Assembly: GCF_000182565.1 (NCBI RefSeq)
Contig: NW_015971543.1
Location: 186,001-250,000 of the forward strand
Source of the DNA: Spizellomyces punctatus DAOM BR117
Taxonomy: Eukaryota > Chytridiomycota > Chytridiomycetes > Spizellomycetales > Spizellomycetaceae
Direction: 5' to 3'
Length of the DNA: 64,000 nt
Shown one piece after another: positions 8,966-46,181 of the stretch (its first letter is position 1; every line of letters starts with the position of its first letter). Made by a program: the position numbers and the translations under genes. The notes beneath the pieces were generated by a model that did not search any database, had not been told where the DNA came from, and saw only the letters and a list, made by a program, of their open reading frames with translations.

Positions 8966-11807
8966 ATGAAGGCTTCTATCGTCCACTCTGCTATTGCCAT
9001 ATTGGCTGCATCCGCTACGGTGCAGGCTGCTCCGCGTCAGCGCTCACCCAGAGTTGGGGAGATCATCCCTGGAGCGTTCTTTATTGAATTGAAGGAAGGT
9101 GGGTTATCCATCAAGATTGTCTCTGAGATGCGCCAGTGAGGCACGCGTACTAAATCAAACCTTACTTTCGCAGCTGTTGAAAACAGCTTGCTCCAAGTGC
9201 TGCNNNNNNNNNNNNNNNNNNNNNNNNNNNNNNNNNNNNNNNNNNNNNNNNNNNNNNNNNNNNNNNNNNNNNNNNNNNNNNNNNNNNNNNNNNNNNNNNN
9301 NNNNNNNNNNNNNNNNNNNNNNNNNNNNNNNNNNNNNNNNNNNNNNNNNNNNNNNNNNNNNNNNCAAGGAACGTCCAGAAGTGCTTAGTGTTCGCCCTGT
9401 TCGTGCCATCCCTAGACCAAAGCCCATCATGACTGCTGTTGGCGATCGTACTGTAACCCCTAGCCTCGAATCAGCCCATGGTCTCACTGGTGTTTTGGAC
9501 GTTCACGACAAGCTCAAGATCTATGGTAAAGGCGTCAAGGTCGGTGTGATCGACTCTGGAGTGTACTACAAGCATCCCGCTTTGGGTGGTGGCTTCGGTC
9601 CCGGCTTCAAGGTAGAGAAAGGATGGGATTTCGTCGGGGATGCTTACACCGGTCTCAACGAACCCATTGAGGACGCTGACCCGATTGACGAATGTTCTGA
9701 CGTGTCCCACGGTACCCATGTTGCTGGTATCATTGCCGCCAATGCCACTGGAATGGCCAAGGAATGGGCGCCAGTTACTCCTTTCCTCGGTGTTGCTCCA
9801 CAGGCCACCCTTGGTGCCTACCGTGTCTTTGGTTGCGATGGCTCCGCTGGTGACGATGTGATTGCCAAAGCCATTTACCGTGGCCATGACGATGGTATGG
9901 ACATTTTGAACTTGAGTCTTGGAGGCGGTTCCCCCTACCCAGACAGTCCCGCCGTGTTTGCGGCGGATCGCGTCTCCAGTAAAGGAACATACGTCATTAT
10001 GGCTGCCGGAAACGACGGTGAGGACGGTGTCTTCACCACCGGTCCACCAGCTGTTGCGCCAAAAGGATGGAGTATTGCATCTATTGACAACTCCAAGTTG
10101 GTGCAATTCAGCATTTTTGACGATGCTGGCAAGTCCTACTCTTACGCTCCTTCGTCCGCTGGTGGCGGTTGGGTCGGAAAAGTGAAGGGACAAATTGTCA
10201 TCAACAGTGAGTGTTTCGACAACCTTATACATCTTGAGCTGTACTGATTGCGATTCTTGTCACCAGACCCGAACGCTGACCCTACAACCACTCTTGACGA
10301 TGGTTGTAAACCAGTTACCATTGATGCTAAGGGCAAGGTCATCATCTTCCAACAGGGTTCTGCCTGTGGATCCGCCGTCCGTTGTGGAAATGCCAAGGCT
10401 GCCGGTGCCGCTGGTTGTCTTGTTTACAACAACGTTCCTGGAAGCATCAACATTTTCGGTACTGCCGGCCTCCCTGGAGGTGGTTTGGACGACCAAACCG
10501 GTCTTGCCATCGTCAATGCTGTGAAAGCCCAACCCAACCGAGTGTGGACCTTTACCAACGAGTTGGGTATCTCTGATGTCCCTACCGCTCGCACGCCTTC
10601 CAGCTTCACATCCCTTGGTCTCGATGGAGATTTGAAAATGAAACCCGAGCTCGCTGGTATTGGTGGTAACGTCTACTCTACCGCATCCAAGTTTGCTGGT
10701 GCCAAGGCGGGAATGCCCACTCCTTACCTCTCCATGTCTGGAACATCGATGGCCACACCATACGTCGCCGGTACAGTTGCGCTCTTTGTGCAAGCCCGCG
10801 GTAAATTGGACACCGAGCTGGTGAAGGCTTACTTCCAGAACAACGCCAAGCCCGTTCACGTTAGCAACAAGGGTGATGATGCGACCCGCTTCGCATCTGT
10901 CGCGCAGCAAGGTGCTGGTCTGGTTGATATCTTTGAGACTATCAACACTCGTACCTTGATTCAACCATCGCGCATTGCTTTGAACGACACCCTTCACCAC
11001 AACGGCGTTCAGCGCATTAGCATCACCAACAACTACGACAGCCCTACCACCTACAAGTTGAGCGACTTTGGCGCCGTGGCCCTCACTGGCTCTGAGAAAG
11101 GTTCAGACCGACCCCTTGCTCATCCCGTTCACTCAAACGAAAAGGCCACAATCATGTTTTCCCAAAAGGAAGTCACCATCCCCGCAGGTAAAACTGTGAC
11201 CATCAATGCCGTTGTCATTCCTCCTATTACCCTTTCTGGAGATCTCTGGCCCATCTACTCTGGCTTCATCAACGTTCAGCCTGTCATCGCCTCCAAGAAG
11301 GGCACTACCAACGCTGCACCTCTTACCATCCCATACGTCGGCATGCGAGGTGACTACAGCCGGGCCCCAACTCTTTTGAAGAAGGATCCTAAAAATGGCC
11401 CCACCATCGGTGCATTTTCCGTCAAAAACAACACCCTCGCCCCTCTCGCAAACCCCATCACCATCAACCCAACCCAAAGCCCTGTGGTTATCCGATTGGC
11501 CTTTGCCTACCCAACTCGTGAAGCCTTTGTCGACATTGTTCCCGCGTCACTATTGGCTCCCAAGCCAAAGACTCACCTTGTCACCCTGGGTTCACAAGGC
11601 CGATCCTACGGCACCGCTGACAAGATTGACATCCCATGGAGTGGTGAAAAGACTCTGGACGTGCCTGCCGGTGGCGTTCCTGACAACAGCACAGTCCCTG
11701 CTGGAAAGTACAAGATCCGCATCTCGGCGTTGAAGCACTTTGCTAACCCCAAGCTGCCCTTTGCGTATGATACTTGGGAATCTCCTGTGATCACTGTGAA
11801 GTACTAG
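8966..11807 (+). CDS. secreted subtilisin-like serine protease (S8A, PA domain)
   Basis: Exons are 8966-9098, 9174-10206 (containing 161 N) and 10267-11807. The protein starts with a signal peptide (MKASIVHSAIAILAASATVQA), then the start of an I9-type propeptide that falls in the assembly gap. The catalytic triad is clear: Asp in VGVIDSGVYYKHP, His in SHGTHVAG, Ser in SGTSMATPYVAG, with oxyanion Asn in MAAGNDG. A PA (protease-associated) domain is inserted between His and Ser (about GKVIIFQQGSACGSAVRCGN). The C-terminus has a beta-rich Fn3-like region of about 300 residues. This architecture matches fungal subtilases of the minor-extracellular-protease/pyrolysin group. It is expected to be secreted and self-processed, and to degrade external protein. 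The reading frame does not match across the N run, so the gap size is not literal. Confidence 0.93.
9204..9364. other. assembly gap (161 N) inside the subtilase propeptide
   Basis: A run of N replaces the propeptide and the junction to the mature enzyme. The frame before the gap and the frame after it differ by one phase, so either the gap length is an estimate or it hides an intron. Confidence 0.99.
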
Positions 11808-26691: not shown

Positions 26692-29600
26692 TCACTGGCC
26701 CAAGTCCTGCTTTACTCCTCTAGATTCCAAATCTAAACCCTCATTTTCGTCCTGCTCCTCCGTTTTCCCAAAGAAATTCTTAACAAACGACCCAGTATTA
26801 GAGCTTCTCATACCCTCCAGTCCATTGATTTCCTCCGGGACAATGCTGCCCTTTCTCATGCTAAAACTCTGCCTTGAAGGCGGTCTTCCAAGTAGAGGAG
26901 CCCCTCGCCCCAACCCAGATATTGGTCCAGTCCGAAGCGCCATACCAAGGGCTCCGCTTGAAGGCCGCGAGGTTCCTGCGCTGAACGATGCTTTAGACCC
27001 TTGTGTGGGTGTGGTAGGTGGGTTGTCGTAATCGGCCGTAGTGCTGACGATGCGTTCATCAGATGCTTTCAGCACATAGCTGCGTTGACTACTGGGGAGA
27101 CCATCACTTTTCTGCGGAATGAAGCTGAATCCGTGATAATCTTTCACGCAGGCATATGTAGAAGCAGTGATGCTAACGTCACCAACGGGACAGCGCTCTT
27201 GGGTCTTGTAAAAACATTAGTTTGACGACCTATAGAGTCATAAATTTGCTTTGTAAATAAGTTTACCTTTTCAGCGATTACCACTACACATGTTGAAGTG
27301 TAATGGCGATCAGTTGAATTGTCTCTCCAGTGTCTTGCAGCAAGGTCATGATAACTTACCGGTATCTCCGATAACATCATACCGAAAGTTCTTTGGTCCA
27401 CCCATAATCGCACCGCAGGCTTGACCTGCTCACTGGTAAGTTGATGCAGTTCATGATTAATACATAATTTGATACGTACCTGTATGTATGCCGATTCGCA
27501 TCTTCAATGGACTTTTTATGATTTGCATCACAATTGCACTTGTATTTAGCTGCTGTTCAACGTATGCTTGCATTTGCAATGCGACCAAGCATATTGACAG
27601 GGCTCCAGTTTTGGGCTCTGCCGATGTTGTTAGCGATGAGCAAGCAACGTACGCATCTCCTGAAAATCAGATCTTTTGATCAGCCAAGCGTCTCAATTAA
27701 CGTATCACTAAATTAGAGTGCCTATACCTATAGTCGTTATCTGCATTATAGATTCTTCATATTAGTACAAAGTATGAATTCCTAAAAGCACAAATCTAGT
27801 ACCTTTTCCACGCCATACTCTTCGGTGAGATGATCAAAGTAAGTGAAAAGTGTGTTGAGCATTTTAACGATAGTCAAGGGTTCTAGATTACTCGACATGG
27901 CTGTGAAGCTAGCTTAGGAATAAGTGACTGTGTAGTTTTGTAACCGACAATGGTCAATTGCAACTTACCCTGCAATGTCCATATGTAAAACCGTCACCAT
28001 GTCCATCTCCTCATAGACAATACTTGTCGGATCCTCTAATAGCTTCAAAATCACCGCCTGCGGTAATATGCTATGCAGAACTGCTGCACTCTTGTTGATT
28101 TCGTCTGCAACAAGTTCTCCCTGCGTATCCAATATCAAATCGATGAGATAATCCACCCTCCGTCGCTTCTCCATCAAGTAGAAAATCGCAACCCATGTAC
28201 ATCCACTGAGGACCATACATGCAGCTTCCTGCCACACGGCTTGGCCAAGAGCTAGCTGCATGATCACGACAGTAGGTCCAACAAGGGAAGCCGCAATGGT
28301 TCGCCAAAGGAATATCATCCCCTCAATTCGCATGCAGAAAAAGAATGCAATGTGTGGTATGACGCAACCAGTCATAAAGTCATAATGTCCAAGCTGACTC
28401 CAAGGCAAAGTAATGCAGATTATCGTAATCCAGATGGTGCAGACGTATATCCAGAAAATAATCTGGCGGGGCACAAATCTTCGTGAAGGTGCCGACGTTT
28501 CTGCCACCGCGAACACTGACACTCCGGTTACCAGCAGCTGAAGCCCAACGCTGGCGACTCCACATCCGAGAATCAGATAGTAGGTTTCAGGCGTGTCAAC
28601 TAGCTGAACGCCATTTTTAATGGCGTTATATATCCCCATAAAGTAGAATAATATTTCGCATAAGAGCACTATGGAACCAGCTCTCACAAACGGGCCGCGT
28701 GTGTCTGCCGTGAAGTCTCCTCGGAACCGATTTTCAATCAGAGGATGTTTGAAGCGTACTCCAAGTGGGTCGAATTCGTTATAAACAATATTCATGTAAC
28801 TGAGGCCCGTAGCAGTTGATATATCAATTTTGGCGCACATTCGCTGTACTACATCCACCAGTACTTCCTTTGCCTCAGGATTGTGACCCGTTTCGTCCTC
28901 AGCTGCTGGCTTTACATTGCTTGGACTGGCTACCTCTCGCATCGTTGCGAGAATACTTGGTTCGTGAGGTTCCGCTTCACGGGTTGGCTCAGAATGCGGC
29001 TTGGCAGTCAGGGTACCAAATTCTCTCTCCACATGGCTAACGTTTGTTCGACCTGTTTTCGCCACTGTCAACGGACTCCCTAGTGTTGCTACCCCCATAG
29101 CTACCTTGGCTGGATGATGAGCGTCCATTCCGCCTCCCAATGCGAGCCCTGCTGAACCAACGCTCAAGTATCTATCCAAAAGTATCTTGGATGTCCCGGC
29201 ATGCCCTGTTGAATTAGGAAAGCCGAACCCCGATCGAGTTTCAACTCCTCCCTCTTCGCTAACTGTGGGTAGTTGCCCGCTTACGCTGTCTTCCACGTCG
29301 GAAGATAAAGGTGCTCTTGCATAGGCGGAACTCACAATTGCGGTATCGATCCGTGCCACGGACCCAAACCGAGACGCTAATCCTTCTAAAGCGCTAGGCG
29401 TAAAACTGGACTTTCGAGAGTATCGTCGGGAGGCCGACAGCTCTGCAGTTTCAACCGGTCCAGTTACAGAATATATTGGTATGACTCCTTTTCCTTTGAC
29501 AGGGCGAGTTCCAAGTGAGACTGTTTCGAAAACTAATAAATACTGGAAAGTCAGTAGCAAGAATTATAAGCATATCTGTACAAACAGAACAGACCCCCAA

Positions 29601-32323
29601 CTATTTTCTGTTGCACATTTTCGGTCACAATGATCTCCTGCTCATGTGCAAGAGAGCACATTCTGGTGGGAGGTCAATTAACAAGCCGGTAGGCTGTTTA
29701 ATGATGATTCAATAATTCCTCACCTGCTAGCTACAAATATGCGTAATCAGTTAGCTGCATATCCTATACAATGAAATCAAGGTTAGCTCATACCTGTATT
29801 TACAACGTCTCCATAGATCTATGACGATTCGGGTGAAGGTCAGATAGGACGAAACGGTAGTTAGATTAACTATCTCTGTTGACCCATTCTGGAGCGTAAA
29901 ATCTGGCTGCGATACCTCGTAAACAAACTTTTTGCGTCCAACAATTCCAGCAACCAGTGGACCTACAATCCAGTATGCATGAGAAATGGCAGTCTCATCG
30001 GTGATTCAGCGCCTGACTTTCCTCACCTAGTGCAACACCAAATTCAATGTCCAGTTTGATAGAGATGCGTTCATCCCCAATGTCGTATAATTGTGGATTG
30101 TTGAAATAATCCCGAAGGGTAAGTGCCAGGTCGAGCATCTTGGAACGGTGCAGATATGGAATCGGTAAGCTACAGAGTATCTGAACTTGCGACCTACTGT
30201 GTGGGAAAGCGTACCTGACGCAGATGGGTATTGCTTCTATGCAGTCCACCTACGAGGAGAATTTTGGTGGAAATCGTCTACATCATACGAAATTGACGGT
30301 CAAAGCCGGAAATACAAGCGAAGAAAGAGTAATTTGGGGTTGCACACTTTTATCTTGGTCACGTCGCTATAATCTTCAATCGCCTCGTCCACATGTTGGA
30401 AGATCCCGTTAAGAAGAGCCAAAGCGTCTTTTGTGGACCCTAATGTGGATGCTACTTCTTTGAAGTTCTTGAGATCACAAAACATGACGGAAGCTAAGAG
30501 TTCATCGGTCAAAAATAACGCGCATTGCATGAAAGGACCTGAATTCGCCTACCTTGAGGGAATCTCTCTGCGATCAGATCAGATCTTCCTATTCCAGACT
30601 CTCGTAGTTTGGCCACAATTGACTTCGGAAGTGATAAGGAGAGAAGGTAGTCTGTCTTCATGCGCTCAAGCCTCATCTGCGCAAGACGGTCTTCTACAAC
30701 CTGGCATTTGATGTATCTGGAAAGGGAGAGAAGGAGGCCGCCTGTGAATATCCTGGTTCAGATCATTGCAGTCTTCAATTTGTGTGCTATCACGCTCTCA
30801 CCCTATTCGACGCTTTCGATCTCCGGCAACAACTAGGCCATAGGACACTATGGCAGTTATTAGAAAGGGTACGGCATAGATTACAGCCGGGTAGGCACCG
30901 TGAGCAAGCGCTACAAAAGCTAGCTTCACAGTGCACAGTATGCTGACCGCAAACAGACCAGCCACTCCTTGCAGATATGTCGCTGCAAATCCGCTCGATA
31001 TGGTGAAATATAAAATTGATATTGTTGACACCGGCCCAACTGGATCCGCAGCATCTGGTGCAAGGTAAAAGTCCCAGGCAGCCCCGGCGCATACGGCAAA
31101 CGTCTGGTGGTAAACAAGTATTGATGAATCTGGCGACGAGCTACTAGCTTTTTGATTCGTAGGTCCCGGAAAGAGACGCTTACCTCCAGTGCAGTCAATG
31201 CAATACGCCAAGTCTTTGATCTCAAAGACAGCCAGATGTAAACTTTCCCTCTCTTCCACACTGTCGCAAATAAAATGAACATCCAACTCAGGGTGTAAAT
31301 AACCCACAACAGTATGAATCCTCTCGTAAATCGTTGGCCATTCCGTTCAAATTTCGCGTACTCGGTTCGATAGGTCGGAAACATGATACCCGTGTATTGC
31401 AACAGTTGAAGGAACGCCAGTAATCGGAGGTGAAGAACTCGGTTGGGAAGAAGTTGTGTGCGGAAGTAGTGCTCTTCAGTACGTGTATGATGGAAGTGAA
31501 GGGTAAAAGGGTTCATATAACGTCGTAGAAGCGAACGATCACTTTCCAGGGATGTGACATCGAGGAAGGTGACGTTGGCATCAGTAAGGTTAGCATCGGC
31601 GTTGCTGCCTTGCTCGACGCTTTTGGCCGAGGAATCGTCATTGACATCTACGGGTGAAACTTGCGAAGCTTTGATTCGGATTTTAGGGATATTGTCCTTC
31701 GGTTTTGCTGCACCTGGAATGGCGTTCAAATTCCCCTTTGCACTCGCAGCTGGTGAATGTCCAGTACGCTGACGTGGGACATGTTGGATCGTATCTGTTG
31801 TTGTCAACTCGTACACTAATCGTTCCCACCATGCTCTTAACCGGTGCCGATATCTCATTTCAAGGCAGGCAAAACTCAAACCTTGCGTACCTAGTGGACG
31901 GAGGGTGCCTGCCTCACATCCGCGATTGCGTGACGGGAGCCATTGGATGTGCTCAGCTGCCTATCAAATTCGAGGATATACCCTCAATACCTAGAACCAG
32001 AACCCTAAAAATATACTCCGGAGGTCCTTTACAAATCGAGTCATATATAGTTAGGTTTAAGTTGGGATTAGAAACCTGACCCTGCTGAATACAGCTCTGC
32101 TCACAAATACAATGCGGACCGAGTCGGCCGCACCCTCTCGGTCATTAGCCTCGCGCAAGCAAGGGAGTGCCGCGGCACCAGACAAAACCACGAGCTGGGT
32201 CCACGACAAGATATCCTTCAAGAACTGGCGCGAAAAGAACGCAGAGGGTAATAAATAACAGCAAGAATGACCAACCATTGGAAGCGTGGGAGACATGGTC
32301 TTTCTGCACGGCTCGGCCACCAT
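26692..32323 (-). CDS. two-domain transmembrane class III (adenylyl-type) cyclase
   Basis: About 18 exons (32323-32081, 31960-31184, 31103-30802, 30752-30553, 30493-30348, 30277-30215, 30138-30027, 29962-29916, 29818-29794, 29730-29724, 29662-29602, 29542-27969, 27908-27803, 27740-27728, 27659-27480, 27425-27360, 27283-27267, 27204-26692) close in phase to about 1483 residues. The order is N-terminal region, six membrane helices, cyclase domain 1, linker, six membrane helices, cyclase domain 2, disordered tail. Domain 1 has VMFCDLKNF, KIKTISTKILLVGG, then IYGDVVNTASRM and PVKGKG. Domain 2 has VLHMDIAGFT, ITTIGDAYVAC, RIGIHTGQACGAIMGG, NFRYDVIGDTV. Lys in KIKTI and Glu in VYEIYG suggest ATP rather than GTP, so it may make cAMP at a membrane. 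Exon 1 and the true N-terminus are uncertain. It is not the peripheral LRR-type cyclase usual in Dikarya. Confidence 0.85.
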
Positions 32324-43863: not shown

Positions 43864-46181
43864 ATGCCTCCAAAGCGGCTCCCACCTCTACAAGAAAAAC
43901 CCGAGATAGTACTGGGCTCGCGATCGAGCGGTACAGGTTCACCTTATCGCCAAGCTGCGTCGCGAGGGGGAGGTCGTGTGCTGTTAGCAGCTGGAAAAGC
44001 CTTGAAGAAAGGTAGAATAAGAAAGAAAAAGGATGGAGATGATGATGGTGAAAGCGATGCAAGCGGAAATGAAGATGAGAATGACAGTGGGGATAGTGAG
44101 AGCGAAAGTGAGAGCAACGGAAGTGAGGAAGAGGATGCGGTAGAAGACGAAGTTGCAGATGACGAAGACGACGACGATGATGATAATGATGATGACGACG
44201 ACGATGAGGAACATGAGAAAGTAGACAAATCAAAGAAAATAGCAAGCCGAGGAGATGAAGCAGTCCCAGCATCGCTCTCCGATGCNNNNNNNNNNNNNNN
44301 NNNNNNNNNNNNNNNNNNNNNNNNNNNNNNNNNNNNNNNNNNNNNNNNNNNNNNNNNNNNNNNNNNNNNNNNNNNNNNNNNNNNNTTCATTCCCATCGTC
44401 CGACGACGAGGCATCCGATTTCATTGCATCGCTTCATGCCTCCATCAATGCAGCAGCAGCGGCGGCCTTGGAATCTCAACCCCACGATGCTCGAAGGGAA
44501 CACTCCCTTCTTCCTTCAACAGGTGCTCCAAACCCTCCGCGACCCCGTCGACAAAAGGCTGTTCGACGTCCTTCTGCGCGCCGCGAAGCCATTCGACTAT
44601 CACATGCCCCGGTAAAACTAACAGGCTCCCAGTTTGAGCTATTCACCGCCTCAACAGGCGGGGGAATTCGAACTGGCGATCCCTATGCTCGATTTTTAAT
44701 AGGCCCCAGGACCGAGCGATTACAGGTCCCGACAGTCGAGGAAGCAGGACGGTCAAAGACAGATCGGCAAATGGCAGCCAAAGGCTTGATGGTTGGCAAA
44801 GCACCTGCTGGCGGGATAATAGCGCGCTCCTTCCCCGTGAGCAAAAGGAAGCGAAAGCAAATGCAAATGGCTGAGATCAAAGCCGAGCTAGTAAGCAAGT
44901 GGGAGAGGTTGGAGGACTTGAGGTTACAGTAGGTATTTTTCTTGTTTCTACGGATGTGCTGATCGAATGACTGTGGATATTGAAGAGTTGAAAATTCCTT
45001 TGTGTCGCATGAAGAATCATTGCCCGGATGAAGTCTCTCAAGCATTACCACGGAGAACTACAGTCACTGTAAGCGTCACTTGTCCATCTACGCTCTTGTA
45101 GAAGTACTTGTTAATAGATTGCTCTAAACTTTGAAAACCCCAAAAGAAAGGACGAAAATAAGCAGCTAAAGGAAGAGCATCAACGCATCACAGCGGAAAT
45201 GGTTTGTGTATGCAGCCTAATTCGAATATTGCTCTGTGCAATAACAGAATCAATCCTGCTTCCTTTATAGAATACGCGAGTTTCCGAGATATTAGATTCC
45301 AATGATGACCAAAACCGTACTATCCTTCAAGTGCACCGCGAACGAAAACAGCAACGTGCAAAACTCGAACGTGATATGGCCAGGTTCCACGCAGCCGCGG
45401 ACGAACGTATTCAAGGTAATGAATGTTGGGATTGAATTCAATTCCATTTGCTACTTACTAATCTTCCCCTGGTAGAGCTAGAAAAAGTCGTGCGAGAACG
45501 TCAAAGCAGCCTCGAAGAAGCTGAACGGGATTTGGAGGAGCTTGTTGAGTTTGAGGTATGAATGGCATCTAGTGCGCTCTGTCAGCGCTTCGTAGCTAAC
45601 AGGAGAAAATATTTTCAAGAATTTGGTCGACATAGACCCAGATGCAATGTCCAAGCAAATCTCTGCCGTCCAGGCCCGCAGAGATGCCCTTCTTGTTGAG
45701 CATGAGCGCAAGCTAGCGGCATTAAGCGAGCACGCTGAGACCGAGGGAAAAGAATCGGAGCAGCTGTTTGTTGACAAAATAATGGCCATTATTGACCAGG
45801 AGAAGTCGGTATGTCGACCAATGTATCAGTTCCTTCATGCTTTATAGTTAATAACCGGCGTTGCATTAGCAACTGACGTCAACATTTGACGACGTACTGA
45901 AAGTGTCCGTGAAAATTAACAAACGGCTACGACGAGAAATCGCCCTCCAGCAAGAGCACCAACTGAAAATAGAGCTGGAAATCGAAGCTAAAATGGCCGA
46001 ACAGCGACGGGCCTTCGAAATGAAGCGTAAGATGGTGGATACCCGCCGGAAAGTGCTCCAATTGTCCAAATTTATGACTTGCACACCAGATATGGAGTTC
46101 AGCGTCGGTGATGTGTTCACTGAAAGGAATACCTCTAAAGATGACAGAGTAGTTTCTACAGCGCTGGCCGCATCATCTTAG
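43864..46181 (+). CDS. coiled-coil protein with acidic N-terminal region, function unknown
   Basis: Exons are 43864-44928 (interrupted by 100 N), 45015-45068, 45147-45201, 45271-45415, 45476-45555, 45620-45808 and 45870-46181. The start MPPKRLPPLQEKPE is followed by a Lys/Arg patch and a long Glu/Asp/Ser tract with a run of Asp. After the gap comes a basic Arg/Pro-rich part, and then from about residue 330 long heptad-rich helices (for example LKEEHQRITAEMN, LEEAERDLEELVEFE, AALSEHAETEGKE) that continue almost to the end. Joining the exons keeps the heptad pattern, which supports the splices; three of them use AAG acceptors. I do not recognise the family. A structural role (cytoskeleton, kinetochore or ciliary base) is only a guess from the coiled coil. 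Confidence 0.7.
44286..44385. other. assembly gap (100 N) in the coiled-coil gene
   Basis: Exactly 100 N, the usual placeholder for a gap of unknown size. The reading frame before and after differ, so the true length must be a multiple of three (not 100) if no intron is hidden there. Confidence 0.99.

What the first reader, a model, noticed from the sequence alone, without database searches (positions are those of the whole stretch)
27360..30493. Membrane cyclase with two complementary half-sites in reversed order
Seen: domain 1 has one metal-type Asp (FCDLKNF) but S-T where the second Asp should be (KIKTISTKI), and it keeps Asn and Arg in VVNTASRM. Domain 2 has both Asp (HMDIAGFT, TIGDAY) but V and K where Asn and Arg should be (GDTVVIAEK). 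Known: in animal transmembrane adenylyl cyclases, C1 supplies both Asp and C2 supplies Asn/Arg plus the adenine-selecting Lys/Asp. Here the C2-like domain comes first and the C1-like domain second. Inference: one composite active site from a circularly swapped arrangement, with ATP as likely substrate (Lys in KIKTI, Glu in VYEIYG). Fungi are normally described with peripheral LRR-type adenylate cyclases, so a 6TM-C-6TM-C enzyme is notable.
Basis: partly seen in the sequence, partly recalled or inferred. Interest (0 to 1): 0.85.

Follow-up and report, generated by a model that had tools for sequence, protein, structure and literature searches.

The report
Chytrid membrane cyclase, halves reversed
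A zoospore-forming fungus carries a twelve-helix membrane enzyme, probably making the messenger cAMP, whose two catalytic halves stand in the opposite order to those of the animal enzymes; the reversed order is already known from a cGMP-making parasite enzyme, so this is a new variant rather than a new kind.

Summary
Confirmed. The minus strand (31858..26692) holds one 17-exon gene whose exons reproduce, letter for letter, SPPG_04407 of the chytrid Spizellomyces punctatus (1355 aa). Layout: six membrane helices, cyclase domain D1, six helices, cyclase domain D2. D1 keeps the purine/transition-state half of a class III site (K429, E503, N510, R514, K551), D2 the metal/phosphate half (D1055, D1099, R1152). 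The split holds in 31 chytrid protein rows, D1 before D2 in 30 of 31. D1 is C2-like, D2 C1-like in half-site state; a modelled relative superposes on the AC9 pair. So: one composite site, reversed against animal tmACs, most likely cAMP (pair K/E, not K/D). Not new: the inverted order, published for Toxoplasma's 12-TM guanylyl cyclase (PMC6592433, passages). Not found in print in seven searches of an open-licence library: this family, in six chytrid orders. The same genome also holds a canonical-order tmAC-like gene and an LRR-type adenylate cyclase. The origin of the reversed order is undecided. No activity was tested.

The parts
26692..31858 (-). whole coding gene, 17 exons, encodes SPPG_04407 (1355 aa)
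   Evidence: exons joined give P0001 letter for letter; P0001 named
30831..31438 (-). first membrane bundle, six helices (residues 141-316)
   Evidence: six main hydropathy peaks averaged over 18 rows; six helices in the AlphaFold2 model of the relative P0037
29456..30562 (-). cyclase domain D1 (residues 378-562), C2-like
   Evidence: PF00211; IIC2 51.8 bits against VC1 21.9 bits; in 6 of 6 listed two-domain tmAC entries the TM1+D1 model of P0037 was aligned with the C2 half
30474..30476 (-). D387, the single metal-type Asp kept in D1 (pseudo-site)
   Evidence: D in 26, E in 3 of 29 rows
30348..30350 (-). K429, purine-selecting Lys of D1
   Evidence: 29 of 30 rows
30266..30268 (-). T433, place of the missing second Asp in D1
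   Evidence: Asp in 1 of 30 rows, that one in a broken gene model
29916..29918 (-). E503, second purine residue of D1 (Asp in animal C2)
   Evidence: Glu in 31 of 31 rows
29798..29800 (-). N510, transition-state Asn of D1
   Evidence: 30 of 30 rows
29662..29725 (-). R514, transition-state Arg of D1; codon split by an intron (29725, 29724 and 29662)
   Evidence: 28 of 29 rows
29489..29491 (-). K551 of the VKGKG motif of D1
   Evidence: 28 of 29 rows
28172..28669 (-). second membrane bundle, six helices (residues 825-990)
   Evidence: six membrane helices in the AlphaFold2 model of P0020
27100..28006 (-). cyclase domain D2 (residues 1046-1220), C1-like half-site
   Evidence: PF00211; VC1 52.8 bits against IIC2 37.3 bits, but GC-A 97.1 bits
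27977..27979 (-). D1055, first metal Asp of D2
   Evidence: 29 of 29 rows
27655..27657 (-). D1099, second metal Asp of D2
   Evidence: 30 of 30 rows
27496..27498 (-). R1152, triphosphate Arg of D2 (non-Arg in D1)
   Evidence: 30 of 30 rows; D1 has E, A, G or S there in 14 of 14 rows aligned
27267..27283 (-). 17-base exon with V1181 and K1185, where Asn and Arg are replaced in D2
   Evidence: Asn in 0 of 29 rows, Arg in 5 of 28

Best explanation
It is a membrane-bound class III nucleotidyl cyclase of 12-TM (tmAC-like) build in which one polypeptide forms one active site. The two cyclase domains pack head to tail below two six-helix bundles. D2 holds the two catalytic metals through D1055 and D1099 and the triphosphate through R1152; D1 holds the purine through K429 and E503 and stabilises the transition state with N510 and R514 (and K551 of the VKGKG motif; roles by homology, recalled or from PMC6592433). 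The opposite interface keeps only D387 of these residues and should not be catalytic; it is a candidate allosteric pocket. Because the halves stand in reversed order, the active site should lie where animal tmACs have their forskolin pocket when the chains are superposed in order (inference). Substrate most likely ATP, product cAMP. Shown here: gene, layout, half-site split and its conservation, similarity of each half, modelled fold of two relatives. Inferred: catalysis, substrate, single active site, regulation by the membrane bundles.
Against: No activity data. E503 replaces the Asp of animal tmACs, so the substrate call is weaker than K/D would give. As whole domains D1 scores best with a bacterial cyclase (92.4 bits) and D2 scores 97.1 with GC-A, more than with VC1 or the AC8 C1 stretch; a bacterial domain ties with AC5. 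Nine of the 31 rows have a gap or an outlying letter at one of the key places, mostly in broken gene models.
Confidence: 0.85

Rival explanations
1. Same composite site, but the enzyme is a guanylyl cyclase or accepts both nucleotides: Lys donates to guanine O6 and Glu accepts from N1-H and 2-NH2.
For: The inverted-order 12-TM enzyme I could read about is a GC (PMC6592433). Glu is invariant at the second purine position, 31 of 31, where the adenylyl cyclase rows have Asp. D2 scores higher with GC domains than with VC1 and groups with GC-type domains in the trees, 94/86 and 84/85, unstarred.
Against: Lys at the first purine position in 29 of 30; the GC-type rows have Glu there (Asp in one algal row). 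D1, which carries the purine residues, lies on the animal C2 side (92/76 and 86/89, unstarred). In chytrid RGC1 a K/D pair turns a GC into an AC (PMC12264004, passages).
Confidence: 0.2
2. A catalytically dead or purely regulatory protein kept for its membrane sensor.
For: Each domain alone lacks half a site.
Against: The missing halves are complementary and the retained residues are near-invariant in 31 rows; a dead pair would not be expected to keep them.
Confidence: 0.05
3. Two genes or a wrong splice reading; missed exons restore the lost residues.
For: Several tiny exons (7, 13, 17 and 25 bases) lie exactly at the catalytic motifs; the database protein may itself be only a prediction.
Against: The exons reproduce the database protein exactly; relatives show the same split, and 30 of 31 rows have both domains in one annotated protein.
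Confidence: 0.03
4. On origin, not function: the gene is a circular permutation of a canonical-order tmAC such as the one in the same genome.
For: D1 with animal C2 plus the fungal canonical C2 at 86/89, unstarred; holding D2 with the C1 domains costs only 2.45 log units, p 0.284.
Against: The canonical gene's C1 joins animal C1 (97/89, starred) and its C2 animal C2 (94/80), while D1 and D2 sit on long separate branches. D1+D2 as one clade is not rejected either (p 0.213 and 0.152), nor D2 with the P-ATPase GC2 domains (p 0.503).
Confidence: 0.25

Closest known systems
Animal 12-TM transmembrane adenylyl cyclases (AC5, AC8, AC9)
   Same: 6TM-C-6TM-C in one chain, one complete and one degenerate site, same half-site residues but one, pseudo-dimer fold in the model
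   Different: order of the halves reversed; Glu instead of Asp as second purine residue; first Asp kept in the C2-like half (Ser in animal C2)
Inverted-order 12-TM guanylyl cyclase of Toxoplasma (TgATPaseP-GC) and the alveolate and Dictyostelium proteins named with it
   Same: 12 TM, two cyclase domains, N/R in the first and both Asp in the second (PMC6592433, passages); two metagenome proteins with P-type ATPase domains, P0113 and P0114, show the same split
   Different: no ATPase domain here; purine pair K/E, in Toxoplasma E/A. Inverted order in Plasmodium, Paramecium, Tetrahymena and Dictyostelium GCA is recalled; the 1999 and 2001 papers are not held
Chytrid NeoR/RGC1 rhodopsin-cyclase heterodimer
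   Same: one catalytic site built from one partner's purine residues and the other's Asp pair; the metal partner has T/K in place of N/R (PMC12264004, passages)
   Different: two chains, rhodopsin input, GTP substrate
Fungal LRR-type adenylate cyclase (Cyr1 kind)
   Same: class III cyclase; one is in the same genome (L009)
   Different: LRR and PP2C domains, which P0001 lacks; single cyclase domain

Membership tests
Class III cyclase homology domain (PF00211) | domain score above the curated cut-off | tested here: met
   97 and 130 bits against a cut-off of 21.9 (pieces of my first model); two stretches in P0001
Animal-type tmAC | two six-helix bundles each followed by a cyclase domain | tested here: met
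   (prediction only)
Animal-type tmAC | one complete composite site plus one degenerate site | tested here: met
   by sequence
Animal-type tmAC | C1-like (two Asp) half first, C2-like (N/R) half second | tested here: not met
   order reversed
Animal-type tmAC | Lys/Asp purine pair | tested here: not met
   Lys/Glu, 29 of 30 and 31 of 31 rows
Animal-type tmAC | makes cAMP from ATP | not testable with these tools
   needs an assay
Inverted-order 12-TM guanylyl cyclase (Toxoplasma type) | inverted order of half-sites | tested here: met
   against PMC6592433
Inverted-order 12-TM guanylyl cyclase (Toxoplasma type) | N-terminal P4-ATPase-like domain | tested here: not met
   whole P0001 gives only PF00211 at E 0.001
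Inverted-order 12-TM guanylyl cyclase (Toxoplasma type) | Glu-type GTP purine pair (E/A or E/C) | tested here: not met
   K/E
Inverted-order 12-TM guanylyl cyclase (Toxoplasma type) | shared ancestry of the two domains | tested here: inconclusive
   against P0113-P0115: D2 with GC2 fits equally well (p 0.503), D1 with GC1 p 0.090
Fungal LRR-type adenylate cyclase | LRR and PP2C domains | tested here: not met
   absent from P0001, present in L009
Rhodopsin-guanylyl cyclase | microbial rhodopsin domain | tested here: not met
   only PF00211 in P0001

The most novel reading that the evidence does not exclude
Chytrid fungi have their own, undescribed class of 12-TM adenylyl cyclase with reversed half-site order and a Lys/Glu purine pair, present in at least six chytrid orders and, in Spizellomyces, beside a canonical-order animal-type tmAC, so that one fungal genome holds both orders and the reversed order exists for ATP as well as for GTP enzymes.
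Probability: 0.6. Interest if true: 0.62.

Novelty: new variant of a known kind. Interest (0 to 1): 0.52.

Why it matters
The two halves of 12-TM cyclases stand in one order in animals and in the other in the Toxoplasma guanylyl cyclase; why, and whether order ties a membrane bundle to a particular half, is open. A culturable fungus that holds both orders in one genome lets that be tested directly: swap bundles, compare regulation, and see whether the vacant pocket, with one Asp still kept, has become an allosteric site. It also widens the picture of fungal cAMP signalling beyond the LRR-type adenylate cyclase.

Tried and rejected
The hand-spliced model (1371 aa) was replaced by the database reading where two introns differ; the first splicing attempt had a one-base error. 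The origin of the reversed order could not be settled: eight AU tests, four on 47 rows and four on 49 rows, gave p 0.090 to 0.503; one further grouping and three needed no test because the best tree already held them. Trees used 14 of the 31 chytrid rows, picked by hand to spread over genera; one of them (P0011) has a gap at the first Asp of D2. The hydropathy average left out 3 of 21 rows.

Literature, all ten searches used. Seven on fungal or chytrid cyclases gave no description of this family or of canonical-order tmACs in chytrids; one search gave no paper, one search listed 12 of 35. Three on inverted order and Dictyostelium (one search listed 15 of 16). Listings show titles and abstract starts only, and subscription papers are not held, so this is a weak negative. 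Of seven papers I read passages only: PMC6592433, PMC12264004, PMC8815786, PMC11988041, PMC1435932, PMC5285503, PMC4046227. Linder 1999 and Roelofs 2001 were seen only as citations.

Protein searches: searches scored only the 7997 and 7990 candidates sharing most words; one search scored 399 candidates in a length window that leaves out animal tmACs. One search had missed the Batrachochytrium row that one search found, so absence from other fungal phyla is not shown. The modelled relative P0020 has a two-residue insert at KIK-AS-TI, likely a splice error in that entry. In one search the outlying Thr of P0037 at the VKGKG Lys comes from the cut end of its domain: the protein does contain VKGKG. 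NCBIfam gave nothing for P0001.
Full report
What is there. On the minus strand of the window, 31858 to 26692, lies one gene of 17 exons. Joined, they give exactly the 1355-residue protein SPPG_04407 of Spizellomyces punctatus DAOM BR117 (found, printed). The introns begin with GT and end with AG. My own first model had 17 exons too but differed at two introns and was 15 residues longer. Pfam finds only the class III cyclase domain PF00211 in P0001, in two stretches.

Layout. Hydropathy averaged over 18 of the 21 rows of alignment A1 (P0001 included; P0013, P0014 and P0020 left out) shows six main peaks (1.39 to 2.3) before the first cyclase domain, residues 141-316, and six (1.56 to 2.27) before the second, 825-990, besides three weaker shoulders of 0.73 to 0.85. 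AlphaFold2 models of two relatives that fit the size limit agree: six membrane helices before D1 in P0037 and six before D2 in P0020, the first of them broken. The build is 6TM-C-6TM-C.

The half-sites. D1 carries K429, E503, N510, R514 and K551; of the two metal Asp it keeps D387 and has T433 at the second place. D2 carries D1055, D1099 and R1152 and has V1181 and K1185 where Asn and Arg should be. The 31 chytrid rows come from 28 named species or strains. Those looked up fall in six orders of Chytridiomycota: Spizellomycetales, Rhizophlyctidales, Polychytriales, Cladochytriales, Chytridiales, Rhizophydiales (8 names looked up). D1 stands before D2 in 30 of 31; P0037 ends after D1. Counting rows with a letter at the place, D1 has K 29/30, E 31/31, N 30/30, R 28/29, VKGKG Lys 28/29, first Asp 26/29 (E in 3), second Asp 1/30 (P0013, broken model). 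D2 has Asp 29/29 and 30/30, Arg 30/30, Asn 0/29; at the Arg place K 23 and R 5 of 28. Nine of the 31 rows (P0006, P0007, P0008, P0011, P0013, P0014, P0021, P0037, P0109) have a gap or an outlying letter at some of these places. Together the two domains hold one set of class III contacts; the other interface keeps only D387 and, in D2, an Asp at the second purine place (27 of 30).

Mechanism. Metals and triphosphate on D2, base and transition state on D1, one site per chain, vacant pocket opposite. The same division of labour with one working site is shown by experiment in the chytrid NeoR/RGC1 pair, where RGC1 sets the base and NeoR gives the Asp pair, and where NeoR has T and K at the N and R places (PMC12264004, passages; there, putting N and R back into the isolated NeoR domain gave no activity). 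Substrate: Lys at the first purine place points to ATP; Glu instead of Asp at the second leaves a guanylyl or mixed cyclase possible. I put ATP at about 0.75.

Known or new. The inverted order is published: in Toxoplasma TgATPaseP-GC the first domain brings N, R and the base residues and the second both Asp, 'unlike tmAC' (PMC6592433, passages). Two long metagenome proteins with P-type ATPase domains show it as well (P0113, P0114). The chytrid family differs: no ATPase domain, K/E pair, fungal. Whether it occurs in other fungal phyla was not settled. Seven literature searches of an open-licence library found no description of it.

Same genome, other cyclases. Fourteen PF00211 stretches lie in the genome, two of them this gene's D2. 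On contig C4 (253955-257105) a second gene gives one open frame of 832 residues with GT-AG introns from its first cyclase domain through a membrane region to its second; the first membrane bundle upstream was read by eye only. It is in the canonical order: the first domain has both Asp and the Arg but D and I where N and R should be, the second has F and T for the two Asp and keeps K, D, N, R. Its C2 scores 105.4 bits with IIC2 and 73.2 with VC1, its C1 100.7 with VC1 and 61.7 with IIC2, and they join their animal counterparts in the tree at 94/80 and 97/89. On contig C2 is an LRR, PP2C and cyclase gene of the usual fungal kind, in two reading frames. So one fungus holds both orders.

Origin. 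D1 and D2 are each one group of 14 rows (100/100) on long branches. D1 lies next to animal C2, 92/76 on 47 rows and 86/89 with the fungal canonical C2, both unstarred; D2 lies nearer GC-type domains (94/86; 84/85), but D2 with C1 domains (p 0.292, 0.284), with the P-ATPase GC2 domains (p 0.503) or with D1 (p 0.213, 0.152) is not rejected. Permutation, common descent with the alveolate-type enzymes, and independent duplication with complementary loss all stay open.

Verdict. It is a new, AC-like, fungal variant of a known kind.

Noticed in passing
L010 3456-6606 (contig C4 253955-257105 of the same genome): A second two-domain membrane cyclase in the canonical animal order, one open frame of 832 residues, closest to animal tmACs; its first membrane bundle was read by eye only.
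   Followed up: partly
L009 3394-8406 (contig C2, minus strand): LRR in one reading frame, PP2C and cyclase domain in the next: the usual fungal adenylate cyclase is present too.
   Followed up: yes
L001 and L002 (contig C13 about 298.9 and 306.0 kb): Two long reading frames 7 kb apart, coiled-coil by eye, ending in GC-type cyclase domains (E/C with N and R; E/A with Gln at the Arg place), perhaps a heterodimer pair; a third PF00211 stretch (L004, 300.7 kb, other strand) lies between them.
   Followed up: partly
L013 (contig C1 about 1.3107 Mb): A cyclase domain behind what reads by eye like a sensor plus HAMP region; Pfam gave no family for the 1116-residue frame before it.
   Followed up: no
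P0005, P0006, P0012; P0036, P0106, P0107: Three relatives carry the database name 'Nitrogen permease regulator 2', and three others are annotated as one protein with a zinc-cluster or RasGEF/SH3 part; perhaps annotation carry-over or merged neighbours.
   Followed up: no
P0110, P0111, P0112 (Rhizophydiales): Here D1 has Glu for the remaining Asp, and D2 has Asp for the lost Asn with Arg kept and Asn at its second purine place (the Asp in P0110 and P0111): the vacant site has drifted differently.
   Followed up: no
window 9204-9364 and 44286-44385: Two runs of N, 161 and 100 bases.
   Followed up: no
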